Positions 1,431-14,707 of a stretch of DNA of 37,503 nucleotides are shown one piece after another (the first letter of the stretch is position 1; each line of letters starts with the position of its first letter). Source of the DNA: Alphaproteobacteria bacterium (lineage in GTDB: Bacteria > Pseudomonadota > Alphaproteobacteria > Reyranellales > Reyranellaceae). Below the pieces are notes generated by a model, which searched no databases, was not told the origin of the DNA, and saw nothing but the letters and a program-made list of their open reading frames with translations. A program made the position numbers and the translations under genes. The stretch spans positions 1 to 37,503 of the forward strand of contig VGCZ01000048.1 of the NCBI GenBank assembly GCA_016869975.1, written 5' to 3'.

Positions 1431-2069
1431 GTGGCGAATGTCTTGGTCATCGGAGCCAGCAAGGGCATCGGACTGGAAACCGTAGGGGTGGCCCTGAAAG
1501 CTGGCCACCGTGTGCGAGCTTTCTCTCGTTCGGGCGGCCGACTGAGCGTTGCTCATCCCGGCCTGGAAACACGCCGTGGCGACGCGCTCAACCCTGATGA
1601 CATAGACGGCGCCCTCGAAGGCATCGACGTGGTGATTCAGGCATTGGGCGTGGCGTCGCGTGACCTCATCTCACCTGTCACCCTGTTTTCCAATGCCTCC
1701 CGCATTCTTGTCCCGGCAATGGAAAGGCGGGCGGTGCGGCGACTGATTTCGGTGACCGGGTTTGGTGCTGGAGACAGTCGCGCCGCGATCAACTGCGCTC
1801 AACGTGTTCCATTTCGCCTTTTCCTCGGCCGCGCCTATGACGATAAGGACGTTCAGGAGCAGCTGATCAAAGACAGTACGCTCGATTGGACGATTGTCCG
1901 CCCGGGCGTTCTCGTGCCGGGTCCGGCATCCTATCGCTACAAAGTTCTGGTGGAGCCCGCGCAATGGCGTAACGGCTTCATCTCGCGCGCTGACGTAGCC
2001 GATTTCCTCGTCAAGCAAGTGGCAGCAACGGAGTTCTTGCGTCGGGCTCCGGTCATCGTGCGCTTCTGA
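1431..2069 (+). CDS. Atypical SDR, NAD(P)H-binding protein (copy A)
   Basis: A 212-residue Rossmann-fold protein beginning with the nucleotide-binding motif VIGASKGIG. It lacks the classical YxxxK catalytic pair and resembles the NAD(P)-binding NmrA/SDR_a5-like group, so it may be a redox sensor or a reductase of unknown substrate. The GTG start at 1431 is supported by GGAGGAGAG a few bases upstream. It heads a run of closely packed genes ending in the photolyase. A paralogue of identical length lies at 11376-12014; more than half of the residues appear identical by eye, including LIKDS and the WRNG...SR...VADFLV segment. Function is unknown; the context suggests light or oxidative stress. 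Confidence 0.82.
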   Translation: MANVLVIGASKGIGLETVGVALKAGHRVRAFSRSGGRLSVAHPGLETRRGDALNPDDIDGALEGIDVVIQALGVASRDLISPVTLFSNASRILVPAMERRAVRRLISVTGFGAGDSRAAINCAQRVPFRLFLGRAYDDKDVQEQLIKDSTLDWTIVRPGVLVPGPASYRYKVLVEPAQWRNGFISRADVADFLVKQVAATEFLRRAPVIVRF

Positions 2070-2077
2070 CGTCTTGA

Positions 2078-2497
2078 GTGGTGGCGCAAGTGAAAGAGTC
2101 CGACCCCAAGACCGTGGTTTTCTTCGACGGCTCCTGTCCTCTGTGTAGGGCCGAAATCAACTATTACCGACGGCGCGACAAGGGCCAGGCGCTGTGCTTG
2201 GTCGATGTTTCCGTACCAGGCGCACCAGTTCCGCCCGGCCTGGACCGCGACAAGGCGCTATCGCGGTTCCATGTCGTGGCGGATGACGGCAAATTGCTTT
2301 CAGGGGCCGCAGCATTTGCGGAGGTCTGGAAGAAGGTACCGGGCTGGCGATACGCTGGAAGGCTCGCGAGCCTGCCTGCGGTCAGTCGCGTGCTCGAATC
2401 TTGCTACCGGCTCTTCCTCCTGTTGCGTCCGACCCTTGTCCGCGCCTTCGTACTCGCGCAAGGCGCCAAAGCGATGTTTCGCGCGCGTCGCCCATGA
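2078..2497 (+). CDS. DUF393 (DCC family) thiol-disulfide oxidoreductase-like protein
   Basis: A 139-residue protein of the DUF393/DCC family. It starts with the family hallmark VVFFDGSCPLCRAEINYYRRRD, a thioredoxin-like CxxC site (CPLC). The rest follows the usual pattern, with an LSGAAAFAEVW segment and a hydrophobic C-terminal half. The GTG at 2078 lies 8 bases after the previous stop; another GTG follows directly at 2081 and is a possible alternative. The end overlaps the next gene by four bases (ATGA), indicating translational coupling. Family members are putative redox proteins without a settled substrate. The setting between SDRs and a photolyase suggests a stress or redox role, which is inference. 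Confidence 0.85.
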   Translation: MVAQVKESDPKTVVFFDGSCPLCRAEINYYRRRDKGQALCLVDVSVPGAPVPPGLDRDKALSRFHVVADDGKLLSGAAAFAEVWKKVPGWRYAGRLASLPAVSRVLESCYRLFLLLRPTLVRAFVLAQGAKAMFRARRP

Positions 2498-2949
2498 GAT
2501 ACCTGGTCGATGACATGCTGCATGGGTTTCGAAGTACACCCGTTGCGGCTCAATGGCTCGGGTTATTGGGGTTGATTCCCTTCGGGGCGACCGTAGTCGC
2601 AGGCCTCATCCCGGCCCTACAGCTGCACAGTGTGGCACTACAGGCGCTGCTGGCCTATGGGGCGGTGATTCTGTCGTTCTTGGGTGGCATCCGCTGGGGC
2701 CTGGCAATCGTCAAGGCCGGTCACGCCGACCTGTTCTCGCCGCTCCTGATCAGCGTTCTGCCATCCCTTCTTGGTTGGATCGCCCTGTTGGTGTCGGGTT
2801 CAACGGGGCTTTTGCTGCTGGCCTTCGGATTCTCCGCGCTCCTGCTGGCAGACCTCCGACTTCCAATGGCACCGGATTGGTACGGCGCCCTGCGATTGCC
2901 GCTGTCGGTTGGCGCTATCGCCGCATTGCTGATGGGAGTCCTATTCTGA
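2494..2949 (+). CDS. DUF3429 family membrane protein
   Basis: A 151-residue integral membrane protein with about five hydrophobic helices. After a short cytoplasmic start it carries LGLLGLIPFG, then LLAYGAVILSFLGGIRWG, which is the recognisable DUF3429 core motif, followed by ISVLPSLLGWIALL and two more helices. The ATG at 2494 overlaps the DUF393 stop (ATGA), and its own stop TGA shares a base with the next ATG at 2949. Family members are often found next to DCC-family and photolyase genes in Proteobacteria. The molecular role is unknown. Confidence 0.8.
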   Translation: MRYLVDDMLHGFRSTPVAAQWLGLLGLIPFGATVVAGLIPALQLHSVALQALLAYGAVILSFLGGIRWGLAIVKAGHADLFSPLLISVLPSLLGWIALLVSGSTGLLLLAFGFSALLLADLRLPMAPDWYGALRLPLSVGAIAALLMGVLF

Positions 2950-3626
2950 TGTCAAACAACGTCGCGATCATCGTCGGCGCAAGCGGAGGAATCGGAAGTG
3001 CATTGTGTGAGTCGCTGAGAGATGCGGGTGACTTTGGTGACGTTGTCGGGCTCAGCCGGCCGGAGATCGACCTCTGCGACGAAGCAAGCATCGCTCGGGT
3101 GGCCAGCCGGCTTCCAAGAGGCGACGTACGGCTTGTCATCAACGCAGCTGGCATTCTCCATGATGCGGGCCGGCGCCCTGAGAGGAGCCTACGCGACCTT
3201 GATCCCGCTTTTCTTTCCCGATTGTTCGCGGTCAATGCCATCGGTCCTGCTTTGTTGATGAAGCACTTTCTCCCCTTGATGCCTCGGCAGGGTCGCGCTG
3301 TGTTCGCCACCCTTTCGGCGCGGGTCGGCAGTATCGGCGACAACAGGCTAGGTGGCTGGTACGGCTACCGCGCTTCCAAGGCCGCATTGAACCAGTTGAT
3401 ACGCACCGCCGCGATCGAGTTTGCACGCAAGCATCCGGAGGCCATTTGCGTGGCTCTTCATCCGGGGACTGTCGCGACGCGACTCTCCGCTCCGTTCGTG
3501 GGTCAAGGGAAATCGCCCCAAAGCCCCAACGATGCGGCGAAGCACCTACTGAGGGTAATTGCCGCGCTGAAGGTCGAAGATAGCGGCTGTTTCTTCGACT
3601 GGCGCGGTACGTCGGTACCTTGGTGA
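2949..3626 (+). CDS. SDR family oxidoreductase (C-factor-like)
   Basis: A 225-residue classical-type short-chain dehydrogenase. The cofactor loop is IVGASGGIGSAL near residues 8-19, NAAG is at the middle of the Rossmann fold, the catalytic Ser lies in ATLSARVGSI, and the Tyr/Lys pair is YGYRASKAALN. The HPGTVATRLSAPF segment is typical of the C-factor/csgA-like SDR branch. The start overlaps the DUF3429 stop by one base. It probably reduces or oxidises a small carbonyl or alcohol using NAD(P)H; the substrate cannot be read from the sequence. It sits four genes into the photolyase operon and is followed after three bases by the DUF2256 gene. Confidence 0.88.
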   Translation: MSNNVAIIVGASGGIGSALCESLRDAGDFGDVVGLSRPEIDLCDEASIARVASRLPRGDVRLVINAAGILHDAGRRPERSLRDLDPAFLSRLFAVNAIGPALLMKHFLPLMPRQGRAVFATLSARVGSIGDNRLGGWYGYRASKAALNQLIRTAAIEFARKHPEAICVALHPGTVATRLSAPFVGQGKSPQSPNDAAKHLLRVIAALKVEDSGCFFDWRGTSVPW

Positions 3627-3629
3627 GCC

Positions 3630-3806
3630 ATGGGCAAGATGCGTCGCAAGAGCGATCTGCCAACCAAGCTTTGCCCGGCTTGTGGTCGCCCCTTTGCGTG
3701 GCGGAGAAAATGGGCGAGCAACTGGGCCGAGGTCAGGTACTGCTCTAAACGCTGCGGCGGCGAATATCGCTCCGCGAGGAGCGCCCTGCCGGCGAAGCGG
3801 CTATGA
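3630..3806 (+). CDS. DUF2256 small zinc-ribbon-like protein
   Basis: A 58-residue protein. It has two cysteine pairs, LCPACGRPF near residues 14-22 and YCSKRCGGEY near 38-46, framing WRRKWASNWAEVRYC, which is the DUF2256 signature. It probably binds a metal. The ATG at 3630 follows the SDR stop by three bases, and its TGA overlaps the photolyase ATG by four bases (ATGA). DUF2256 genes are typically found beside cryptochrome or photolyase-like genes, so it may assist the photolyase or its iron-sulfur cluster; this last point is inference. Confidence 0.88.
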   Translation: MGKMRRKSDLPTKLCPACGRPFAWRRKWASNWAEVRYCSKRCGGEYRSARSALPAKRL

Positions 3807-5347
3807 AGACTTTACGCCTAGTGCTTGGCGATCAGCTGTCGACTGGTGTAGCGGCTCTCACCGGTATCGATCGGGCGAACGACGTTGTACTGATGCTCGA
3901 GGTTGAAGACGAGTGCCGCTACGTTCCGCATCATCAGCAGAAAATCGTTCTGTTTCTGAGCGCCATGCGGCACTTCGCCGAGGAACTTCGTCAGTCGGGA
4001 ATCAACGTCGACTATGTCCGGCTCGACGATCGCGCCAACACCGGTACCCTCACTTCGGAGCTCGGGCGCGCTCTGGCCCGACATCGACCCCAGCGCCTGG
4101 TTCTGACCGAGCCAGGCGAATGGCGAGTGCTCGCCATGGCCGAGGGCTGGTCAAACCGTTTCGGCCTGCCAGTCGAGCTGCGTACGGATAGTCGTTTCTT
4201 CTCGACCAGGGCGAGGTTCCGCGCCTGGGCCGATGGCCGTCGCAGTTGGCGAATGGAGCATTTCTACCGCGAGATGCGTCGGGAGCACGACATCCTGATG
4301 GACGGTGATCAGCCGGCTGGCGGGGCGTGGAACTTCGACACGGAAAACCGCAAGAGACTGCCCGACGGAACGCCGCTGCCATCCCGGCGGCGCTACGCTC
4401 CGGATCATACAACCCGTCAGGTCGCGGAACTCGTGGCTGATCGCTTTGGCGCGCACATTGGCAACGCCGAGACATTCGACTGGCCCGTAACCCGCTCCCA
4501 GGCCTTGAAGGCCTTGGACGATTTCCTGGTGAATGGACTGCCTTGGTTCGGCGACTACCAGGATGCAATGAAGGAGGGTGCTCCTTTTCTTTATCATTCC
4601 CTGCTGGCGCCGGCTCTCAACCTCGGCCTGTTGTCGCCGCGAGAAGTCTGCGCTGCGGCCGAAAAGGCTTGGCGCGCGGGTCGTGCGCCGATCAATGCCG
4701 TTGAAGGTTTTGTCCGTCAGATCTTGGGCTGGCGGGAGTATGTTCGTGGCATCTACTGGGAGATGATGCCGGGTTACGCCGATTCCAATGCCTTGGAGGC
4801 CCACAGGCCCCTACCGGATTTCTACTGGACCGGCGAGACCGACATGCGGTGCCTGCGCGAGGCGATCACCAGTACCCGGAAGTATGCCTACTCGCACCAT
4901 ATCCAGCGGCTGATGATCACAGGAAACTTCGCGCTGCTTGCGGGCATCGCGCCGCGCGAGATCGAACGCTGGTACCTCGCCGTATATGCCGACGCTGTCG
5001 AATGGGTTGAGATGCCCAATACGTTGGGTATGGCTGTCTTTGCGGATGGAGGCCGAATGGCGTCCAAACCCTATGCGGCTTCAGGCGCCTACATCAATCG
5101 TATGTCCGATTTCTGTGCGGGCTGCTCTTACAGCGTTGCTCTCAAGACAGGGCCACGAGCCTGCCCATTCAACTACCTCTACTGGGCATTTCTCATTCGC
5201 AACGAGGATCGCCTGAAAATGAATCCGCGAATGGCGATGCCCTACCGCACGCTCTCGAAATGGTCTGCTGCAGAGAAGAAGAGGTACCTTGGCGAGGCGG
5301 AAGCATTTCTTGATAAGATTCTGCCAATCGATAACCGAGGCAGCTAA
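3803..5347 (+). CDS. phrB: Iron-sulfur (6-4) photolyase / bacterial cryptochrome (PhrB/CryB type)
   Basis: A 514-residue member of the prokaryotic FeS-BCP photolyase family, which repairs UV-induced (6-4) photoproducts in DNA using FAD and light. The four cysteines that hold the 4Fe-4S cluster in Agrobacterium PhrB (350, 438, 441, 454) occur here at exactly those residue numbers: MRCLRE, DFCAGCSY and RACPF. The active-site HH pair falls at 365-366 in YAYSHHIQRL. The N-terminal antenna domain opens with LRLVLGDQLS. Known homologues bind dimethyl-ribityl-lumazine as antenna. Its start overlaps the DUF2256 stop by four bases and it ends the operon. All key residues are intact, so it should be active. 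Confidence 0.94.
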   Translation: MKTLRLVLGDQLSTGVAALTGIDRANDVVLMLEVEDECRYVPHHQQKIVLFLSAMRHFAEELRQSGINVDYVRLDDRANTGTLTSELGRALARHRPQRLVLTEPGEWRVLAMAEGWSNRFGLPVELRTDSRFFSTRARFRAWADGRRSWRMEHFYREMRREHDILMDGDQPAGGAWNFDTENRKRLPDGTPLPSRRRYAPDHTTRQVAELVADRFGAHIGNAETFDWPVTRSQALKALDDFLVNGLPWFGDYQDAMKEGAPFLYHSLLAPALNLGLLSPREVCAAAEKAWRAGRAPINAVEGFVRQILGWREYVRGIYWEMMPGYADSNALEAHRPLPDFYWTGETDMRCLREAITSTRKYAYSHHIQRLMITGNFALLAGIAPREIERWYLAVYADAVEWVEMPNTLGMAVFADGGRMASKPYAASGAYINRMSDFCAGCSYSVALKTGPRACPFNYLYWAFLIRNEDRLKMNPRMAMPYRTLSKWSAAEKKRYLGEAEAFLDKILPIDNRGS

Positions 5348-6236: not shown

Positions 6237-7130
6237 TCATGCAGGCCGAACCGACCGCCTGGCGGCCAGCGCCATAACGCACATGTGCGGCACGGTCAGC
6301 GCCGCAAGCGCAATGAAGACGATGCGCACGAGGTCGTCGTCCCAGCGCGGGCTGGCGATGTCGGCCAACCACGGCGAGGCCGACGCGAAGCAAAACAAGG
6401 CGAGGGCCGTGTATAGGGCAATAACGGCGAGCAAGCGGCGCCTAGTATGTGCGTTGGCGCCGGCGGCGGCTTGCCGCAGGTGTCTTGGGCTATGCAGGAA
6501 GCAGAAGTAAACGACGAAATAGGCAAGTGGTGGCAGAAGCGTCCCCAGCGTCGCCAGCGTCGTCAATTCGAGGGCTGCCAGCGTGGCCTTGCGAATGGCG
6601 AGACCGGCCGCAGCCAACAGCGCCACCAGAGTAAGGGCGGGACCGGCGTCACCGAGTACGCCAGCAAGCGTCTTCCCGCCCTCGCCGCCAAGAAGGGTGA
6701 GCAAGTGTTCGACCTCTACGGGCCAGTGCCACGCTGGAAACGCTAGTAGCGCGGTTCCGACCAACGGGCGGAGGACTGAGGGCAAGGGCCAGTCGCCAGC
6801 GAAGTGCCAGGCCGACACAGCGAGGAACAACGCAAGGCCGGCAGCGGGCGCTGCCAGCCAGCCGACGACGACGGACGCGGCGGCGGCGATATACACAACA
6901 TGGAACACCACGGCGCCGCGCCACGTGCGCCAGAGCGCTGCGCGCCATGCGATCCATGGGTCGAGCGCGCCGTGCGGCAGCCCGCCAATCACGACCGCCG
7001 CAGCAAGCAGCACGGCGATTCGGTGATCGTCGACTGTCGGCCCGGTGATGACGAGCACTACTGCGAGTGCGGCGATGGCTAGGAACACGAGCGTCTCCGT
7101 CCCGCCACCTCTTGAGGTATCCAAACTCAC
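6237..7130 (-). CDS. blh: Brp/Blh family beta-carotene 15,15'-dioxygenase
   Basis: A 297-residue polytopic membrane enzyme that cleaves beta-carotene to two retinals, the rhodopsin chromophore. Family histidine motifs occur in order: GLPHGALDPW near residue 50, SAWHFAGDW, FCFLHSPRH and TVPHMCVM near the end; these His residues hold the iron. The GTG start at 7130 has GGAGG five bases upstream and overlaps the preceding stop as GTGA, so a longer in-frame reading is rejected. It lies downstream of a broken lycopene cyclase and of the rhodopsin, all on the minus strand. A hairpin at 8045-8079 may reduce read-through to it. Confidence 0.9.
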   Translation of the reverse strand: MSLDTSRGGGTETLVFLAIAALAVVLVITGPTVDDHRIAVLLAAAVVIGGLPHGALDPWIAWRAALWRTWRGAVVFHVVYIAAAASVVVGWLAAPAAGLALFLAVSAWHFAGDWPLPSVLRPLVGTALLAFPAWHWPVEVEHLLTLLGGEGGKTLAGVLGDAGPALTLVALLAAAGLAIRKATLAALELTTLATLGTLLPPLAYFVVYFCFLHSPRHLRQAAAGANAHTRRRLLAVIALYTALALFCFASASPWLADIASPRWDDDLVRIVFIALAALTVPHMCVMALAARRSVRPA

Positions 7131-8040
7131 GAAGCCCTCCCGGCGGCAAGCTGCATCGCGGCCGCGCGCAGGAACGCCACCGGCGGCAGCGCCGCCATCA
7201 CCTGGACGACATCGCGGCATCGACCAAAGTCTGACAGGAATGGCAGCAGTCTGATCGGGGGGCCCGCCTCGGTGAGACGCTGAAAGTAGCCGAATACGCG
7301 TTCGGGTTGCGTGGCCGGCGCGCGCAGGAAAATCCCGTCCAGCCATCGACGCAGGTACGGCTCGCGCAGGTGGCCCTGAGGCTCATACTCGCGCACGGTA
7401 GCGTCGGCGCAGCCGTCGGCCCTGGCCGGCAATCGCAGGACACCGTAGCCCGAGTCCGCCCGCAATGTGCGTCCGGACGTTCCGGCACGGACAACGTCCG
7501 CTATCAACTCGTCCGAGGATGGATCGGGCTGGTTCAGCGGCAGCATCGCGTGTTCTTCGCGCACGCACGATGCCCCGACCCAGCCGCGTTCGACTAACAG
7601 GCCATCGACGCCTGCGGCCGGGGCGTTTAGGTTGAACGGGGCTGGCGCAAAGCGGACCATTTCAACCAGCGCGTTGCGCGGACAGCGATCGGGTACGGGC
7701 AATGTCGAACCCCCTCGCGCCACAGAGCATATCGCCCATGACCTCGGCTACGCCCGCGTCTGTCGGACCGTCGAGCGCGAGTTCACGTTCCAACAACGAC
7801 TGCAACAACGTCGAAAGTGCCACGCGCCCAGCGTCGAGTAGACGCGTGTCGAGCACCCGGCGGACATCTATGCAACCGAGGCTCCGGTCGACGGCGACAC
7901 CGGTGCCAAGAGGCCTCACGGCTGCGGCCTGAAGATCAAGTTGCAACGTCACCGTTTCATTCGAAGCGACGGCGAGACGCCCTGCGTCTCTGACACGCTT
8001 GATCGTACTATCGCCATCAATCGACGAGCCGCGAACAAGT
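7127..8040 (-). pseudogene. crtY: Decayed lycopene beta-cyclase (crtY), N-terminally truncated and frameshifted
   Basis: The minus-strand frame from 7723 to 7127 reads like the C-terminal half of FAD-dependent lycopene cyclases: NALVEMVRFAPAP, REEHAMLPL, SGYGVLRLPA, LDGIFLRAP, PFLSDFGRCRDVVQVMAALP. The preceding part is in another frame (to about 8040): LLDAGRVALSTLLQSLLERELALDGP, matching the mid-region where cyclases have an IDARG...GW..FLG..L pattern, then VMGDMLCGARGF. One indel near 7690 would join the two. The N-terminal dinucleotide-binding GxGxxG domain is absent, because the rhodopsin gene begins where it should be. If so, the enzyme cannot bind FAD. The alternative is a diverged short protein from 7723; the family call is by eye. 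Confidence 0.6.
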
Positions 8041-8044
8041 AGAA

Positions 8045-8079
8045 GGAGCGAAGCGCTGCCAGAAGCTGCGCTTCGCTCC
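8045..8079 (-). terminator. Hairpin terminator candidate after rhodopsin
   Basis: An 11-base perfect stem, GGAGCGAAGCG (8045-8055) with CGCTTCGCTCC (8069-8079), and a 13-base loop. On the minus strand it is followed by TTCTACTTGTT, a moderate U-tract. It lies 45 bases after the rhodopsin stop, so the rhodopsin could be transcribed largely apart from the cyclase remnant and blh. Confidence 0.6.
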
Positions 8080-8124
8080 AGCCCGAACGTAGGTCCCATG
8101 GCGAAAACGCTCCGGGACTGGTAT

Positions 8125-8883
8125 TCACGCCTTAACGCCGTCCAGCTCAGACTTTCTAATGGCGATCATAAAGATCACGACACCAAAGACTGCCTTCGCG
8201 ACGATGTCCGCGATCGTGTACCCGACCTCAATGGCTGCCGTCGCCGTACCGCCACCCAGCGCAAGCACAAACGGGGCGAAATAGACCACCGGGTAGAAGC
8301 ACCACGACAACACCGTCAGGTTCCGCGCAAGTCGAATCAGGCCGCGGACTTCGGATGATTGCCGAGAGATCGATTGCTCAAGACTCGTGTACAGTGTGTA
8401 GACAATGTACACAAACGGGATCATCGACAGCGCGCCCCAAATAAGCCGCGTGCTATCGATTCCGCCTGACACTTCGCCTGGGTAGCCGAGCGCAATCATC
8501 AGAGCTGCGGCACCGCCAAGGCTAACCGAGCGCGACACCGTTTCTGTTTGCGAGAGCCGCATCACCAAGATCAGTTCGATGAGAAGCAGCGGAACCGTCA
8601 GCAGCCAATCGACGTAGCGGTAGGATTGGTTGAAGACTACGCCGGTTGCTGTGATAACGCCCTTAGAGACGTCATAGGCGGCATCCCAACTATTGAAAAT
8701 TCGCCAATAGTGGTAAAGAGCGATGAACGTCACGAGACCGGTGATCGTCACAGCGGTTTTGTACTGAAGCGATACTTGGGATCGGCCGAGCCAGAAGAAC
8801 AGAGTGGCCGCCGCGAAGGTGGCAATGCCAAACGAGAACGCGTTTGCTACCAGCGTGTACTGGCCGACGCTAAGGGCATCCAT
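8125..8883 (-). CDS. Proton-pumping microbial rhodopsin (proteorhodopsin/xanthorhodopsin-like)
   Basis: A 252-residue seven-helix retinal protein of the cell membrane that should use light to export protons. Helix C reads YRYVDWLLTVPLLLIE: R89, proton acceptor D92, T96 and donor E103, the DTE pattern of outward pumps. L100 stands at the spectral tuning position (Leu105 of proteorhodopsin), predicting green absorption. H58 in LYHYW can pair with D92. K230 in ADIVAKAVFG is the Schiff-base lysine. In helix E, WGALSMIP puts G150 where bacteriorhodopsin has Trp138, the glycine that opens a carotenoid-binding window in xanthorhodopsin. It is preceded by CCGGAG as ribosome site and by a small membrane protein gene on the same strand. 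Confidence 0.95.
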   Translation of the reverse strand: MDALSVGQYTLVANAFSFGIATFAAATLFFWLGRSQVSLQYKTAVTITGLVTFIALYHYWRIFNSWDAAYDVSKGVITATGVVFNQSYRYVDWLLTVPLLLIELILVMRLSQTETVSRSVSLGGAAALMIALGYPGEVSGGIDSTRLIWGALSMIPFVYIVYTLYTSLEQSISRQSSEVRGLIRLARNLTVLSWCFYPVVYFAPFVLALGGGTATAAIEVGYTIADIVAKAVFGVVIFMIAIRKSELDGVKA

Positions 8884-8969
8884 GATTAACTCCGGTGATC
8901 CGTATCGAGGTTTCTTCTAACCTCAAGGCAAGCTATTGGAAGGTATCCAGCGTTGACTTCGCGAAGCTG

Positions 8970-9269
8970 TTAGCCACCCCAGACATCATCGTAGCGCGCG
9001 GTGCCATCGTTGGCCTTGTAATCGCGGTACGTGGCTGGAGACTGCTGCTGCGCTTTCGAGAAGGTGAAGCCTGTCAGAAGAAATCCACACGCGACCAGAA
9101 GGTGGAAAACCATGAGTTCGCCGTACCACAGCCAGGCGCCAGCTCCAGCGCAGAACACGGTGGTCCACATGGTGCCCAGCATGGCCATCACCTGGAACCT
9201 CTGCGCGGCGGGCAGGTTTCTCAGCGGGTTTACGTTCGAGTCCATCACAGCGCGATAGATTGACCACAT
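8970..9269 (-). CDS. Small two-helix membrane protein upstream of rhodopsin
   Basis: A 99-residue protein of no recognised family. Two hydrophobic segments, MLGTMWTTVFCAGAGAWLWYG and LMVFHLLVACGFLLTGFTF, are followed by a polar tail rich in Gln, Tyr and Asp that ends DDVWGG. GGAGAG lies six bases before the ATG. An ECF-type promoter (9300-9329) places its start about 30 bases downstream of the -10 element, and the rhodopsin gene follows after 86 bases, so both are probably one transcript. It may be a rhodopsin-associated membrane factor, but nothing in the sequence proves it. Confidence 0.7.
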   Translation of the reverse strand: MWSIYRAVMDSNVNPLRNLPAAQRFQVMAMLGTMWTTVFCAGAGAWLWYGELMVFHLLVACGFLLTGFTFSKAQQQSPATYRDYKANDGTARYDDVWGG

Positions 9270-9299
9270 AGCTACTCTCCCTATGAATGTTCGATATCA

Positions 9300-9329
9300 G
9301 GACTACGACAAGCGGCGTTTGTCGGATCA
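9300..9329 (-). promoter_or_regulatory. ECF (RpoE-type) promoter of the rhodopsin operon
   Basis: On the minus strand, TGATCC (9329-9324) and TAGTCC (9305-9300) are separated by 18 bases. TGATCC is the -35 element of singlet-oxygen RpoE promoters described in Rhodobacter sphaeroides, whose -10 is TAAGA-like. The start codon follows the -10 by about 30 bases. The same geometry recurs at the fasciclin gene (11190-11219), and an RpoE/ChrR pair lies 3 kb away. Confidence 0.62.
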
Positions 9330-9493
9330 GCCTGCGACAATATGAGATCGGCGGCGGTCGAATGTCTTGAACCGGGGGCAAGTCGTACCCCGGCGTCGTG
9401 ATCGTCGCCGAAAGCAGCGAGGTTCAAGACCCGCCGTTTGGCCGCGGGTATCAACACGGCCACCATACAAGTCTTCCTGCCATACAACGGCTT

Positions 9494-9703
9494 TCAGGCG
9501 CCTTTCAGGAAGTACCAGACTGCAGCCAGCCCGACTGCGAGGACCTGAAGTCGTACGCGCCACCACATCATCTGGTTGCCGCGCCGTAGGCCGTCGACAC
9601 CGCCGTGCCCGGCACGGATCATTCCGACGAAAACAGATCCGAGCGCCCCAAGCATGCAAAGCGCGGCAAGGATCAGAGCGAAATTGGATATAGCCTTGGC
9701 CAC
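9494..9703 (-). CDS. HIG1-domain / twin transmembrane protein
   Basis: A 69-residue protein with two transmembrane helices (LILAALCMLGALGSVFVGMI and LQVLAVGLAAVWYFL) joined by a loop reading RRGNQMMWWRVRLQ. This resembles the (S/N)N-x-M-x-x-RV-x-x-Q loop of bacterial HIG1 (hypoxia-induced protein) domains, which in mitochondria and alphaproteobacteria associate with respiratory oxidases. The start is GTG at 9703 with AAGGAG about nine bases upstream. It is on the same strand as the rhodopsin operon but upstream of its promoter, so it is probably transcribed separately. The link to light physiology is only by position. Confidence 0.7.
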   Translation of the reverse strand: MAKAISNFALILAALCMLGALGSVFVGMIRAGHGGVDGLRRGNQMMWWRVRLQVLAVGLAAVWYFLKGA

Positions 9704-10185
9704 GATGGCGGCTCCTTGGATTCTGGGGCGTCACAATGATATGAACCCGGGTAATCGATTCCCACCGCCCCTAGAGGTTTTCACTCGCAATGGCATCGAT
9801 AAACGCCTCTGCGCTGCGCAGATGAGGCTCATCGCCTTGTTATCTCGGATGTCCGGCAGAGCAGATCACCCGATGAAAAGGTTGGGTTTCACCGTCGACA
9901 GGCGATGCACTCACCGAGCGCCGTGCTCTGCCATCGTCGCCCAACCCGCGCCTCCCATGCTAGTGAAAAGAGTACGTTGTGGCCGGGGCATCGGATGTGA
10001 CGGCGCGAACCCGATCCTCACGGATTTACAGACGGCAGGTCTTCAGGAGACTGCATCCGCAATTGCTGAAAGAACGCGAGTCGTTCGCGAACCGGCGCCT
10101 AACGACTTTGGGCGAACAGCAGCCAGCGGTTTCGCGATGACATGAGCCCCTGAATGTCATCCAGATGTGACGAAAGTCCGTCGGT
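9704..10185. other. Gene-free stretch before an IS3 remnant
   Basis: About 480 bases with no supported gene. Long frames here are open on both strands but show no domain, no convincing ribosome site and poor codon character. Probably non-coding or decayed DNA. Confidence 0.45.
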
Positions 10186-10432
10186 GGGAGACGGACGAAA
10201 AAGCGATCGCCATACACGGCAGAGCAGATAATCCAGGTCTTGCGGGAGCAAGAATCCAGGGATGAAAAGACGGAGTCGTGCCGTCGGTATGGGATCAGCA
10301 GCGCGACGTTGCATAAGCGGAAGATGTTGCACGGAGGCCCCGAGGTTTCGGATGCGCGACGCCTGAGGAAGCTGCTGGTCGAGCAGATGTCGAACACTGC
10401 GGTGCCGAAGGACGCGGCAACATTAAACGGGG
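10186..10432 (+). mobile_element. IS3 family OrfA remnant
   Basis: The plus strand reads SPYTAEQIIQVLREQES, SCRRYGISSATLHKRK, HGGPEVSDARRLRKLL and VEQMSNTAVPKDA in one frame. These are the helix-turn-helix and leucine-zipper parts of an IS3-family OrfA (normal form EEQII..LRE.E.G, CR.HGIS..TFY.WK..YGG...S). About ten residues between the RRL and KLL segments (normally LEDEN..L) are missing, no start codon is present and OrfB does not follow. It is an inactive fragment. Confidence 0.85.
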
Positions 10433-10489
10433 CCGCCGGCGGCCATATGAGAGGCCACGGCTCGTAGAGCGGGAGCTTTACAAGTAGAA

Positions 10490-10511
10490 AAGACGCCCCG
10501 AAGGGCGTCTT
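10490..10511 (-). terminator. Rho-independent terminator of the fasciclin gene
   Basis: A nine-base perfect stem AAGACGCCC / GGGCGTCTT with a four-base loop (TTCG on the minus strand, a very stable tetraloop), followed on the minus strand by TTTTCT. It lies about 165 bases downstream of the fasciclin stop. Confidence 0.75.
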
Positions 10512-10676
10512 CGTCGAAGGCTGCTGTGATAGACGAATCTCGCGCAACAAATTTGCACAAGATAGCCCGAGTTGCGACTCGATCGCCGCTAGGAGTATTT
10601 CACCACGTCTACCGGGGATCCTCGTCCACGCTGACAACCGCGCTACTCTCAGAGCGTCACTGCTCAGCGGGTGAGG

Positions 10677-11159
10677 TTACTTCGGCATCAGGACGGTATC
10701 GATCACATGGATCACGCCATTGTCGGCCGCCACGTCAGCGGACAAGACCTTGGCGCCATTGACGTTCACGCCGCCCGACGTGGCATCGACCATGACCATA
10801 CCGCCCTCGACTGTCTTGGCGTCGGTCTTCTTGCCGGCAAGCGCCGAACTCATGACCTTCCCGGGCACCACGTGATAGGTCAGGATTTTCACCAACTGTG
10901 CCTTGTTCTCGGGCTTCAGGAGGTTCTCGACCGTTCCAGGGGGAAGCTTCTTGAAAGCCTCATCCGTCGGCGCAAATACCGTGAATGGGCCGGGGCCCTT
11001 CAGAACAGCGACAAGATCGGCCGCGGTCAGCGCGGCTGCGAGAGTTTTGAACTGGCCCGCTTTCACCGCTGTATCGACGATGTCTGCCGCTTGGGCGGTG
11101 ACGGACATGACCGAGACCAGCGCGCCGGCGGCGAGACTGAGGAAAGTTTTGCGCAGCAT
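10677..11159 (-). CDS. Secreted fasciclin (FAS1) domain protein
   Basis: A 160-residue exported protein: a signal peptide ([20 protein letters not shown], cut after AQA near residue 24), then a single FAS1 domain. Domain landmarks are [13 protein letters not shown], the H1 box [26 protein letters not shown] and the H2-like [15 protein letters not shown] at the very end. FAS1 proteins act in adhesion or at the envelope; bacterial single-domain forms are widespread and some respond to stress. A promoter with the same layout as the rhodopsin operon lies directly upstream, suggesting membership of the RpoE regulon. Confidence 0.93.
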
Positions 11160-11189: not shown

Positions 11190-11219
11190 AGTTTACGCTC
11201 GGCGTCGCTCTCCAGATCA
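11190..11219 (-). promoter_or_regulatory. ECF (RpoE-type) promoter of the fasciclin gene
   Basis: On the minus strand, TGATCT (11219-11214) and TAAACT (11195-11190) are separated by exactly 18 bases, and the ATG follows about 30 bases after the -10. It matches the rhodopsin operon promoter in spacing, position and five of six -35 bases, and resembles the TGATCC/TAAGA consensus known for singlet-oxygen RpoE. Confidence 0.6.
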
Positions 11220-12195: not shown

Positions 12196-12750
12196 ATGTT
12201 GTCGGCCCAAGAGTCAGCCGAGCTGATCGAGGCCATCGCGGCTCGCCAGGATCGCGCGGCTTTCGCCAGCCTGTTCCGCCATTTCGCTCCCCGAGTGAAA
12301 GGCTTCATCATGCGCGGCGGCGCCGATGCGGAGGCCGCACAGGAAGTGGCTCAGGAGGCCCTGATGATAGTGTGGCGGAAAGCCGCCACCTTCGACCGCG
12401 CCCGTGCCTCGGCGGCCACCTGGATCTTCACCATCGCGCGCAACAAAAGGATCGATCTTCTGCGTCGGGCAGCCCGGCCGGTCGACGCCGAGGACTGGCT
12501 GATGGTCTACGCGCCGGAGAGCGAGAATGCCGACAAATCCATCCTGGCAGGACAAACGTACGACAGGGCACATCACCTGCTGGAGGGGCTCTCCGAAGAT
12601 CAACTGTCGGTGATTCGGAAGGCCTTTTTTGAGGACAAGTCGCATTCGGTCATCGCGGCTGAACTGCAGTTGCCTCTGGGAACGGTAAAATCCCGCATTC
12701 GTTTGGCTCTCGGGCGGCTGCGGGACGCGTTGAAGAAGGAACAGTCGTGA
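12196..12750 (+). CDS. rpoE: ECF RNA polymerase sigma factor, RpoE (ECF11-like)
   Basis: A 184-residue ECF sigma factor. Region 2 spans about residues 20-90, with FRHFAPRVKGFIMRGGAD, QEVAQEALMIVWRKA and ASAATWIFTIARNKRIDLLRR. Region 4 near 125-180 contains LSEDQLSVIRKAFFEDKSHSVIAAEL, LPLGTVKSRIRLALGRLRDAL. It should direct RNA polymerase to TGATCC-type promoters, two of which are seen in this window. It overlaps its anti-sigma gene by four bases (GTGA). In Rhodobacter sphaeroides the orthologous pair answers singlet oxygen made by light. No good copy of the same promoter was found directly in front of it, so autoregulation is uncertain. Confidence 0.93.
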   Translation: MLSAQESAELIEAIAARQDRAAFASLFRHFAPRVKGFIMRGGADAEAAQEVAQEALMIVWRKAATFDRARASAATWIFTIARNKRIDLLRRAARPVDAEDWLMVYAPESENADKSILAGQTYDRAHHLLEGLSEDQLSVIRKAFFEDKSHSVIAAELQLPLGTVKSRIRLALGRLRDALKKEQS

Positions 12751-13400
12751 GTCGCCATTTGGCCCCCGAAGAACTTCTGTTGGACTATTCCTCGGGCGCG
12801 CTTTCTCACGCCCCTTCGCTAGCCGTGGCAGTTCATTTGGCGCTCGTGCCCGAAGCCCGCCGGACCGTTGAACTATTGGATGCCGTCGGCGGCGCGCTGC
12901 TCGAGAACGAGTGCGCTGCGTTGCCGGACGATTGCGGCCTGGAGCGGGCGATGGCCCGGCTGGACTCGGTCGCATGCGAGCCGCCGGCTCTGCCGTCTGC
13001 GCGGCGTCCAGGCTTCGAGTGGGCTCCGACGCCGCTTGCCTCGTACATCAGGCCGGGTAGCGGCTGGCGCCGCATCCTGGGCAAGTTTGACGAAATTCGT
13101 CTCGAGGTCCCCGGCGATGCCTATCGCGCGTCGTTGGTGAGACTGGAACCGGGCCACAGCCTGCCGGAGCACAAGCATTCAGGGTACGAGTACACAGTTT
13201 GCCTGCAGGGCGGTTACACCGACGCGACCGGCAGTTATGGCGTAGGCGACTTTGCCGTCGGGCCAGGTGCAGAGCGGCATGAACCGATCGCCGATCCCGG
13301 TGAGCCGTGCATCGCTCTCATCATAGTCGAGACGCCGATTGTCCTGACGGGACCGTGGCGCCGCTGGCTGAACCCCCTGGTGAGCCGCCACATTATTTGA
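12747..13400 (+). CDS. chrR: ChrR-like anti-sigma factor lacking zinc-site cysteines
   Basis: A 217-residue homologue of ChrR, the anti-sigma factor that holds RpoE until singlet oxygen is sensed. The N-terminal domain (1-80) has His4 and His30, but the HxxxCxxC zinc motif reads HLALVPEA, with Val34 and Ala37 in place of both cysteines. The C-terminal cupin (about 110-190) keeps all metal ligands: H142, H144 and E148 in EHKHSGYEYT, and H178 in AERHEP, each one number above the R. sphaeroides residues. The GTG start overlaps the rpoE stop. The protein may fold without zinc or bind its sigma factor differently. Confidence 0.9.
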   Translation: MSRHLAPEELLLDYSSGALSHAPSLAVAVHLALVPEARRTVELLDAVGGALLENECAALPDDCGLERAMARLDSVACEPPALPSARRPGFEWAPTPLASYIRPGSGWRRILGKFDEIRLEVPGDAYRASLVRLEPGHSLPEHKHSGYEYTVCLQGGYTDATGSYGVGDFAVGPGAERHEPIADPGEPCIALIIVETPIVLTGPWRRWLNPLVSRHII

Positions 13401-13554
13401 CGCGGCTATCAGTTGGCCGCCTGAGCCATAGACTGACCGCTATCATTGCGCCACCTCTCTGTGGGAGACATCATGACTATGCGTTGGGATGAGATGCGGC
13501 GTAGATGACCGCGTAGGTCGGACTAGCAGCCCTTTTGCCAAGGAATGTAGCGAG

Positions 13555-14268
13555 ATGGACAGCTCAGGTGATGACAACGCCGCGACGGAAGGATCGGCGA
13601 TTTCGGCGCGCATTCGGGATCGCTTGGTTCGGGCAAAGCGGCGCTTCAACGCCAACGACAACATCGCGGACTTCATAGAGCCCGGTGAGCTCGACCTCCT
13701 GCTCGATGAGGTAACGGACAAAATGAAATCGGTCCTGGAAGGGCTGGTCATCGACATCGAGAACGATCACAACACACAAGGCACGGCGCGGCGCGTCGCC
13801 AAGATGTACCTCAACGAGGTATTCCGCGGGCGCTACCACGCGGCGCCGCCGGTGACCGAGTTTCCGAACGTCACTAGCCTCAACGAGTTGATGATCGTTG
13901 GCCCCGTTACAGTGCGGAGCGCCTGTAGTCATCACTTCTGCCCCATCATGGGCCGCCTGTGGATCGGCGTGATGCCCAATCAGCATTCCAACCTGATCGG
14001 GTTGTCGAAGTATGCCCGCCTTGCAGAATGGTTGATGACTCGACCACAAATCCAAGAGGAGGCCATCACGCAGATGGCCGAACTGCTGATGGACATGGTC
14101 AAGCCCGATGGCCTTGCGGTCGTTATGGAAGCGGACCATTTCTGTATGCAATGGCGCGGCGTGAAAGACACCTCCACCAAGATGGTCAACAGCGTCATGC
14201 GCGGATCGTTCCTCAAGGATCCTGCGCTGCGGCGTGAATTCCTTTCGCTCGTCACCATAAACAAGTGA
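13555..14268 (+). CDS. folE: GTP cyclohydrolase I
   Basis: A 237-residue GTP cyclohydrolase I, which turns GTP into 7,8-dihydroneopterin triphosphate for folate or other pterins. The zinc site is CSHHFCPIMG plus the later Cys in ADHFCMQWRG; NLIGLSKYARLAEW and RPQIQEEAITQMAELL are family motifs. The motif CSHHFCP differs from the common CEHHLLP, so it is a divergent member. The ATG at 13555 is chosen with AAGGA about ten bases upstream; an in-frame ATG at 13489 would add a poorly conserved leader. The BLUF gene follows after one base, so the two are translationally coupled. It may be an island-specific second copy rather than the housekeeping enzyme. Confidence 0.9.
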   Translation: MDSSGDDNAATEGSAISARIRDRLVRAKRRFNANDNIADFIEPGELDLLLDEVTDKMKSVLEGLVIDIENDHNTQGTARRVAKMYLNEVFRGRYHAAPPVTEFPNVTSLNELMIVGPVTVRSACSHHFCPIMGRLWIGVMPNQHSNLIGLSKYARLAEWLMTRPQIQEEAITQMAELLMDMVKPDGLAVVMEADHFCMQWRGVKDTSTKMVNSVMRGSFLKDPALRREFLSLVTINK

Positions 14269-14269
14269 G

Positions 14270-14707
14270 ATGCAAATGCTCGTCCGCTGCCTCTACGCCA
14301 GTCGAATTTCAACGCCGCTCGCAGCATCTGCGTTAGACGGAATTCTCGAACAGTCGCGGAAGAACAATCCCAAGCTCGGCATCACAGGCTTGCTTTGCTA
14401 CACTCACGATAGCTTTGTCCAAGTGGTCGAAGGGGGGCGAGAGCCAATCTCGGTCCTGCTCAGATCGATTTATCGTGACGAGCGGCACCAGAAGGTAACC
14501 ATTCTGTCGTTCGAGGAGATCGCCGAGCGGCAGTTCGGCAACTGGACGATGGGCAGTGTCAATGTCGAGAGCATCAACGCTGGCGTATTGTTGAAGTACT
14601 CCGAGAGTGTCACGTTCGATCCGTTCTCCTGCTCCAGTCAAGCGATGATGTCGCTACTCATGGAGCTTATTGCGGCAGGTTCGATCGTGAACCGCGGTAC
14701 CGCCTGA
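14270..14707 (+). CDS. BLUF domain blue-light photoreceptor
   Basis: A 145-residue protein made of one BLUF domain (about 1-100) and a short C-terminal extension, with no attached enzyme domain. All FAD-site residues align with AppA at identical spacing: Tyr9 (LYAS), Asn33 (NNPKLGITG), Gln51 (FVQVVEG), Trp92 and Met94 (FGNWTMG). It should sense blue light through FAD and signal by protein contact, as other short BLUF proteins do. The ATG lies one base after the folE stop. An in-frame ATG two codons on is an alternative start. The partner is unknown; the C-terminal extension with two nearby Cys (SCSS) is not recognised. Confidence 0.93.
   Translation: MQMLVRCLYASRISTPLAASALDGILEQSRKNNPKLGITGLLCYTHDSFVQVVEGGREPISVLLRSIYRDERHQKVTILSFEEIAERQFGNWTMGSVNVESINAGVLLKYSESVTFDPFSCSSQAMMSLLMELIAAGSIVNRGTA

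What the first reader, a model, noticed from the sequence alone, without database searches (positions are those of the whole stretch)
9300..9329. Rhodopsin operon carries an RpoE (singlet-oxygen) type promoter
Seen: TGATCC-N18-TAGTCC about 30 bases before the first gene. The fasciclin gene has TGATCT-N18-TAAACT at the same distance, and the photolyase operon may have TGAACC-N18-TAGGAG. Known: R. sphaeroides RpoE uses TGATCC with a TAAGA-like -10. Placing a proton-pumping rhodopsin under a singlet-oxygen sigma factor would be a notable control mode.
Basis: partly seen in the sequence, partly recalled or inferred. Interest (0 to 1): 0.75.

Follow-up and report, generated by a model that had tools for sequence, protein, structure and literature searches.

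The report
Rhodopsin operon behind photostress sigma promoter
In this bacterium the genes for a light-driven proton pump and its retinal-making enzyme sit behind a promoter of the kind normally used to switch on defences against light damage, apparently because they landed inside an older light-stress gene group, so the cell may build its pump as part of its response to light damage.

Summary
TGATCC-N18-TAGTCC (9329-9300, minus strand) ends 30 bases before the ATG of the operon's first gene, a 99-aa orphan (o99); rhodopsin is second. The site matches in full the ECF11 (RpoE/ChrR) consensus TGATCC-N16-CGTA found by ChIP-seq in Pseudomonas syringae (PMC5507510). It is not chance: 18 of 18 close o99 loci carry it with at most one mismatch, 47-60 bases upstream (15 exact; shuffles 0.0029 per sequence). 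The window also encodes an RpoE-like sigma factor and a ChrR-family anti-sigma factor 3 kb away. In relatives o99, fasciclin, an NAD-binding protein and photolyase-side genes form a photostress island, often with sigma/ChrR; here rhodopsin, a crtY remnant and a beta-carotene dioxygenase lie directly behind o99. Of 80 named and 31 unnamed rhodopsin loci scanned, only another assembly of the same species shares the exact site. Caveats: no expression data; the linked ChrR lacks the cysteine zinc ligands proposed to sense singlet oxygen, so ECF11 control is well supported but singlet oxygen as signal is inferred; a second such sigma exists in the genome.

The parts
9304..9329 (-). ECF11-type promoter of the o99-rhodopsin operon: -35 TGATCC 9329-9324, N16, -10 CGTA 9307-9304
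   Evidence: consensus from PMC5507510
8970..9269 (-). o99: first gene of the operon, 99-aa orphan; no Pfam or NCBIfam family; hydrophobic middle suggests a membrane protein (by eye)
8125..8883 (-). rhodopsin with D92-T96-E103 and K230 (proton-pump type motif, meaning recalled)
   Evidence: PF01036 129.3 bits; conserved residues in A1; dN 0.18, dS 1.43 against L039
7127..8110 (-). crtY (lycopene cyclase) remnant: N-terminal part not found, rest in two frames
6237..7127 (-). beta-carotene 15,15'-dioxygenase (Brp/Blh) that makes retinal; start codon uncertain
   Evidence: PF15461 126.9 bits on ORF 6237-7346
11194..11219 (-). ECF11-type promoter of the fasciclin gene: TGATCT-N16-CGTA
   Evidence: 8 of 8 relative loci with a one-mismatch site at -59 to -61
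10677..11159 (-). fasciclin-domain protein
   Evidence: PF02469 137.3 bits
11376..12014 (+). NAD(P)H-binding protein nad2
   Evidence: PF13460 133 bits
12196..12750 (+). ECF sigma factor, closest solved relative R. sphaeroides RpoE (ECF11)
   Evidence: PF04542/PF04545; 2q1z_A E 4.2e-44
12747..13400 (+). ChrR-family anti-sigma factor with intact cupin ligands but without the zinc-finger cysteines
   Evidence: TIGR02451 150.3 bits, cut-off 124.5
13555..14268 (+). GTP cyclohydrolase I (FolE-like)
   Evidence: PF01227 144.6 bits on the longer ORF 13489-14268; TIGR00063 148.3 bits, below its cut-off of 181.6
14270..14707 (+). BLUF blue-light sensor protein
   Evidence: PF04940 101.4 bits
1349..1374 (+). 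probable ECF11-type promoter TGAACC-N16-CGTA of the photolyase-side operon
   Evidence: same variant before the SDR gene in 6 of 12 relative loci
1431..5347 (+). nad1 (1431-2069), DCC1-like (2078-2497), SDR (about 2940-3626), DPRP photolyase-related gene (3803-5347)

Best explanation
The site is a genuine ECF11 (RpoE/ChrR-type) promoter that belongs to a conserved photostress island (o99, fasciclin, NAD-binding protein, photolyase-side genes and often the sigma/ChrR pair). A rhodopsin-carotenoid cluster landed directly behind o99, lost the crt genes between rhodopsin and crtY and the start of crtY, and kept rhodopsin and the beta-carotene dioxygenase. A sigma factor of the ECF11 group, most likely the one 3 kb away, would read o99, rhodopsin and the dioxygenase as one unit when its ChrR-like inhibitor lets go under photo-oxidative stress; beta-carotene would come from the intact crt genes on contig C54. 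Shown by sequence: promoter match, footprint, gene order, sigma and anti-sigma families, intact rhodopsin frame. Inferred: the insertion history, co-transcription, which sigma acts, the inducing signal, and retinal supply.
For: Full match to TGATCC-N16-CGTA, the ChIP-seq consensus of the sigma PSPTO_1043. 18 of 18 close o99 loci, own included, in 15 genomes, with at most 1 mismatch at -47 to -60, 15 exact; shuffled rate 0.0029 per sequence. 10 of 10 motif columns held by at least 15 of 16 sequences against 1 of 68 other columns. Fasciclin 8 of 8 relative loci. RpoE-like sigma and ChrR in the window. 8 of 8 more distant ECF11-like genes fetched (44-62% identity) have the exact motif within 400 bases upstream. 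Of 14 other genomes with a close o99, 13 have only window-type ECF11 matches at E <= 1e-20 (70-82% identity; the split gene of G056 shows pieces of 63 and 80%). Island order without rhodopsin in relatives. No sigma70-like promoter and no terminator-like site in 7900-9500; o99-rhodopsin gap 86 bases. dN 0.18 and dS 1.43 for rhodopsin against L039.
Against: No transcript data. 39 of 39 window-type ECF loci (own included; one with only 122 bases upstream, two with an unclear start) have no such motif within 260 bases upstream, so the linked sigma gene is not visibly autoregulated. A second pair on C49, which does carry the motif, could be the real driver. The 14th o99-bearing genome, G047, keeps the promoters but shows no ECF11 match at E <= 1e-20. 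The linked ChrR lacks both zinc-finger cysteines, so singlet oxygen as signal is uncertain. Stem-like sequences without a T-run lie in the 86-base o99-rhodopsin gap (read by eye). 6 of 10 exact genome matches lie inside ORFs.
Confidence: 0.77

Rival explanations
1. The promoter is real and ECF11-type, but it is read by the second, C49-encoded ECF11-like sigma (or by both), not mainly by the linked one.
For: The C49 ECF is 60% identical to the window ECF and has the exact consensus upstream of its own gene; it groups with the ECF of the three other genomes of the genus (99/99).
Against: 13 of 14 other genomes with a close o99 have only window-type matches at E <= 1e-20 and keep the promoter; the three genus-mates, one only 67% complete, have no o99 match.
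Confidence: 0.3
2. The ECF11 promoter serves o99 only; rhodopsin is transcribed mostly from another, constitutive or light-regulated promoter, so the rhodopsin link is positional.
For: In relatives the promoter stands before o99 without rhodopsin beside it; the gap of 86 bases can form stems (read by eye).
Against: No sigma70-like promoter and no terminator-like site in 7900-9500 on either strand, a scan that covers only the sigma70 consensus and T-run terminators; same strand, short gap, same order in the second assembly.
Confidence: 0.2
3. The hexamers are a chance match and have no function.
For: Exact matches also occur inside ORFs (6 of 10 in the genome).
Against: Footprint in 18 of 18 close loci at nearly fixed distance, with conservation concentrated on the motif columns.
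Confidence: 0.02

Closest known systems
RpoE-ChrR (ECF11) regulon of Rhodobacter sphaeroides
   Same: RpoE-like sigma with ChrR-type anti-sigma encoded next to it; RpoE-type promoter; photolyase, an SDR and a GTP cyclohydrolase (FolE2) among the targets there, and such genes in the cluster here (PMC6852236, PMC7074977, PMC5507510, passages read)
   Different: The putative target here includes a rhodopsin and a retinal enzyme; ChrR lacks the HHCC zinc site; no Photo_RC match in the genome; the linked ECF gene has no motif of its own
PSPTO_1043/1042 regulon of Pseudomonas syringae
   Same: Identical promoter consensus TGATCC-N16-CGTA; phrB unit in the regulon; a bphO-bphP unit listed with the motif (PMC5507510, passages read)
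   Different: The words rhodopsin and fasciclin do not occur in that main text; the sigma gene there is autoregulated
Vibrio campbellii proteorhodopsin under RpoS1
   Same: An acquired rhodopsin wired into a stress sigma network (PMC3380642, passages read)
   Different: General stress sigma RpoS, direct or indirect action left open there; not ECF11
rhodopsin-crt-blh clusters (Alpha proteobacterium BAL199, Lysobacteraceae MAG)
   Same: Rhodopsin 72-76% identical, followed further down by crtY- and blh-like genes
   Different: No ECF11 motif with at most 1 mismatch within 600 bases upstream of rhodopsin, no o99 and no ECF11-like sigma/ChrR in the fetched stretch; three more ORFs between rhodopsin and crtY

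Membership tests
ECF11 promoter | TGATCC, 16 bases, CGTA | tested here: met
   all 10 letters at 9329-9304; consensus
ECF11 promoter | conserved upstream of orthologues | tested here: met
   18 of 18 close loci with at most 1 mismatch; of 3 weak homologues (28-36% identity) 1 has it and 2 do not
ECF11 promoter | transcription start just downstream and loss of expression in a sigma mutant | not testable with these tools
   needs RNA data
ECF11 sigma factor | closest to R. sphaeroides RpoE; gene followed by a chrR | tested here: met
   2q1z_A E 4.2e-44, next best 9.5e-20; chrR frame overlaps by 4 bases. No ECF-group model was run, so the group name rests on this
ECF11 sigma factor | autoregulated promoter (usual, as in PSPTO_1043) | tested here: not met
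   0 of 39 window-type loci within 260 bases; the C49 paralogue has it
ChrR family | TIGR02451 above cut-off | tested here: met
   150.3 against 124.5 bits; the narrower NF051881 is far below its cut-off, 115.1 against 300
ChrR as zinc-binding anti-sigma (ZAS) | ligands H6, H31, C35, C38 | tested here: not met
   window L, H, V, A at these places; of 45 sequences both Cys are present in 3, absent in 41, unreadable in 1
ChrR cupin-like domain | ligands H141, H143, E147, H177 | tested here: met
   present in the window and in 43 of 45 sequences in all, the other 2 being gaps there
proton-pumping microbial rhodopsin | PF01036, Schiff-base Lys, D-T-E motif in helix C | tested here: met
   the meaning of the motif is recalled
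proton-pumping microbial rhodopsin | light-driven proton transport | not testable with these tools
   needs expression

The most novel reading that the evidence does not exclude
A light-driven proton pump and its retinal enzyme have been captured by an ECF11 photo-oxidative-stress regulon through insertion behind an ancient stress promoter, in a bacterium without a detectable photosynthetic reaction centre; the light-damage signal reaches the pump through a ChrR that has lost its zinc finger and must inhibit and sense in another way, presumably by its cupin domain.
Probability: 0.5. Interest if true: 0.7.

Novelty: new variant of a known kind. Interest (0 to 1): 0.62.

Why it matters
How bacteria decide when to make rhodopsin is little known; PMC3380642 (2012) describes RpoS1 as the first regulator of proteorhodopsin expression identified. 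Here the sequence predicts a direct regulator, a promoter and a class of signal that one reporter could test. It would make rhodopsin phototrophy part of damage control, not only of starvation. The ChrR proteins without zinc-finger cysteines but with intact cupin ligands are a natural experiment on which half of ChrR senses singlet oxygen.

Tried and rejected
Chance match: rejected by the footprint. Autoregulation of the linked ECF gene: looked for and absent in 39 of 39 window-type loci and in the window-type gene of G007. The third ECF with a cupin neighbour in the own genome (C24, 41% identity) showed no motif within 260 bases either, its start being unclear; four further distant ECF matches (in G009, G039, G043, G044) were not examined.

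Generality of ECF11-driven rhodopsin: one search kept the best 80 of at least 553 relatives. Of these 80 (78 with at least 100 bases upstream) the exact motif within 600 bases before rhodopsin stands only in L038, which is 99.9% identical to the window over 11.3 kb; L058 has a one-mismatch site, where shuffled letters give 1.08 loci on average. Limit: only the stretch before rhodopsin itself was read, so a first gene further upstream could be missed.

Reaction centre as source of singlet oxygen: no Photo_RC match in the own genome. Fold of ChrR: mean pLDDT 41.6, unusable, so no fold search was made. Published rhodopsin/ChrR link: one search found no paper, searches list none that reports one by title or start of abstract; of these listings I opened for passages PMC9040609 (its one ChrR passage is in the reference list), PMC7074977, PMC6852236, PMC3818230 not at all; most others were not opened. 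PMC8245535 (passages) did not settle where L038 comes from.

Rows dropped: of 22 o99 loci 18 are close; of 3 weak ones one has the exact motif (L032) and two do not; L037 was not returned by the local tblastn. That the window is alphaproteobacterial, perhaps Reyranellaceae, is my recalled guess; one search found no paper with both Reyranella and rhodopsin.

Full report
Observation. On the minus strand TGATCC (9329-9324), 18 bases, TAGTCC (9305-9300) stands 30 bases before the ATG at 9269. The first gene is not rhodopsin but a 99-aa ORF without any family in Pfam or NCBIfam, called o99 here; rhodopsin (PF01036, 129.3 bits) starts after a gap of 86 bases. TGATCY-N16-CGTA occurs twice in the window, at the o99 and fasciclin positions, with 0.06 expected.

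What kind of promoter. A ChIP-seq study of the ECF sigma PSPTO_1043 gives the consensus TGATCC-N16-CGTA and likens it to the RpoE promoters of Rhodobacter and Caulobacter (PMC5507510, passages read). The window site has all ten letters. In the own genome the ten-letter pattern has 10 matches and its reversed control none. By my reading, 4 of 10 are placed like promoters: o99-rhodopsin, the second ECF/ChrR pair on C49, a DUF2141 protein on C5 and a BD-FAE-type hydrolase on C6 (families); the other 6 lie inside ORFs.

Footprint. Matches to o99 occur in 17 of 76 genomes of the order. Of 22 loci, 18 are close (own included; 15 genomes). 18 of 18 carry the motif with at most one mismatch at -47 to -60, 15 exactly; shuffles of the same 120-base upstream stretches reach this at a rate of 0.0029 (9000 shuffled sequences). 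Three further weak homologues: one exact, two without. Aligned on the motif in 16 sequences, 10 of 10 motif columns are held by at least 15 of 16, against 1 of 68 other columns. Fasciclin: 8 of 8 relative loci have a one-mismatch site at -59 to -61; the window has one at -60. SDR gene: 6 of 12 relative loci have TGAACC-N16-CGTA at -64 or -46. In those 6 a GTP-cyclohydrolase-like match on the other strand lies between o99 and SDR; in the other 6 none was matched there and SDR follows o99 on the same strand.

The sigma factor. The window encodes an ECF sigma (12196-12750) and a ChrR-family protein (12747-13400). The sigma's best solved relative is R. sphaeroides RpoE, 4.2e-44. The genome has a second such pair on C49 (60% identity). 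Of the more distant ECF11-like genes I fetched 8 (44-62% identity), and 8 of 8 have the exact motif within 400 bases upstream. Window-type genes do not: 0 of 39 loci within 260 bases, nor the 69% gene of G007. So the motif goes with this sigma group, but the linked sigma gene is not visibly autoregulated. Of 14 other genomes with a close o99, 13 have only window-type matches at E <= 1e-20, which suggests that this type reads the o99 promoter. The fourteenth, G047, has the promoters and no such match, possibly a gap in a fragmented assembly. In the tree the window ECF falls with the relatives of another genus and the C49 ECF with those of its own genus (two long branches, L194 and L195, are of unsure place).

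The island. In relatives the order is typically nad2, divergent fasciclin, o99, DCC1-like, SDR and, where the contig reaches it, photolyase, often with ECF-ChrR beside nad2 (not every contig reaches all genes and some lack fasciclin near o99). G007 has o99, nad1, DCC1-like, SDR and photolyase in a row behind one exact promoter. In the window the rhodopsin group follows o99, and nad1, DCC1-like, SDR and photolyase lie on the other strand, converging, behind their own TGAACC-N16-CGTA. The simplest history is an insertion with an inversion behind o99; this is inference. FolE-like and BLUF genes follow chrR. In R. sphaeroides the RpoE regulon includes photolyase phrA and folE2 (PMC7074977, passages read).

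The rhodopsin group. The nearest clusters (L039, 76%; BAL199, 72%) read rhodopsin, three ORFs, crtY, blh; I take the three for crtE, crtI and crtB from their order and sequence starts, without a family search. The window lacks them; its crtY lacks the N-terminal part and is split between frames, also in the second assembly L038. The dioxygenase frame is whole. An intact crtY (PF05834, 299 bits), a crtI-like and a crtB-like gene lie together on C54. Rhodopsin shows dN 0.18 and dS 1.43 against L039 (dS near saturation), in keeping with purifying selection. So a pump with retinal supply is plausible though the local crtY is dead.

How special. Of 80 named rhodopsin loci (the best of at least 553) the exact motif within 600 bases upstream occurs only in L038, which is 99.9% identical to the window over 11.3 kb; L058 has a one-mismatch site, as chance predicts. 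In the 79 others no match at E <= 1e-5 to o99, fasciclin or the photolyase gene was found; weak ECF matches (27-30% identity) occur in 4 and weak ChrR matches (33-39%) in 2. G056, of the same family, has a rhodopsin of its own (56%) on a contig without o99.

The signal. R. sphaeroides ChrR needs zinc in its N-terminal domain (H6, H31, C35, C38) to inhibit the sigma, and needs E147 and H177 of the cupin domain to respond to singlet oxygen (PMC6852236, passages read). A model peptide of the HHCC site reacts fast with singlet oxygen (PMC6432622, abstract and outline only). In the window ChrR the four N-terminal places read L, H, V, A. Of 45 sequences from the order both cysteines are present in 3, absent in 41 and unreadable in 1; all four cupin ligands are present in 43, the other two being gaps. 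So ECF11 control is well supported, but singlet oxygen as inducer is carried over from a system whose anti-sigma differs in a key site. The genome has no Photo_RC match, so any singlet oxygen would come from other pigments.

Mechanism, with steps marked. Shown by sequence: promoter, footprint, neighbours, intact pump and dioxygenase frames. Inferred: under photo-oxidative stress ChrR lets go of an ECF11 sigma (linked one about 0.7, C49 one or both about 0.3); the sigma starts o99 mRNA, which runs into rhodopsin and the dioxygenase, no sigma70-like promoter or terminator-like site being found between. The pump could then supply proton-motive force when light damages respiration or membranes.

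Known and new. Stress-sigma control of a rhodopsin is known for RpoS1 in Vibrio campbellii (PMC3380642, passages read). I found no paper joining rhodopsin to ECF11/ChrR control in searches of the held library, which lacks most subscription journals; most listed papers were not opened. I rate it a new variant of a known kind.

Noticed in passing
12747-13400 + and 44 other sequences of the order: ChrR-family anti-sigma factors here mostly lack the two zinc-finger cysteines (absent in 41 of 45, present in 3, unreadable in 1) but keep all four cupin metal ligands where these are covered (43 of 45).
   Followed up: partly
7127-8110 -: crtY in the rhodopsin operon is a truncated, two-frame remnant, also in a second assembly (L038); an intact crtY with crtI- and crtB-like genes lies on contig C54.
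   Followed up: yes
L038: Contig VGHA01000115.1, labelled Betaproteobacteria, is 99.9% identical to the window over 11.3 kb, so it is the same species; its label or binning deserves a check.
   Followed up: partly
13555-14707 +: A FolE-like GTP cyclohydrolase and a BLUF blue-light sensor follow chrR; pterin supply for the photolyase and a second light input are possible.
   Followed up: no
8970-9269 -: o99: orphan protein with a strongly conserved C-terminal end (ARYDD.WGG in 12 of 12 aligned), behind an ECF11-type site in 18 of 18 close loci; function unknown.
   Followed up: partly
G047 (L175): A genome that keeps ECF11-type sites before o99, fasciclin and SDR but shows no ECF11 match at E <= 1e-20.
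   Followed up: no
9330-10676: About 1.3 kb between the o99 promoter and the fasciclin gene without a recognised gene; only the ORF 9327-9734 was searched (no Pfam match).
   Followed up: no
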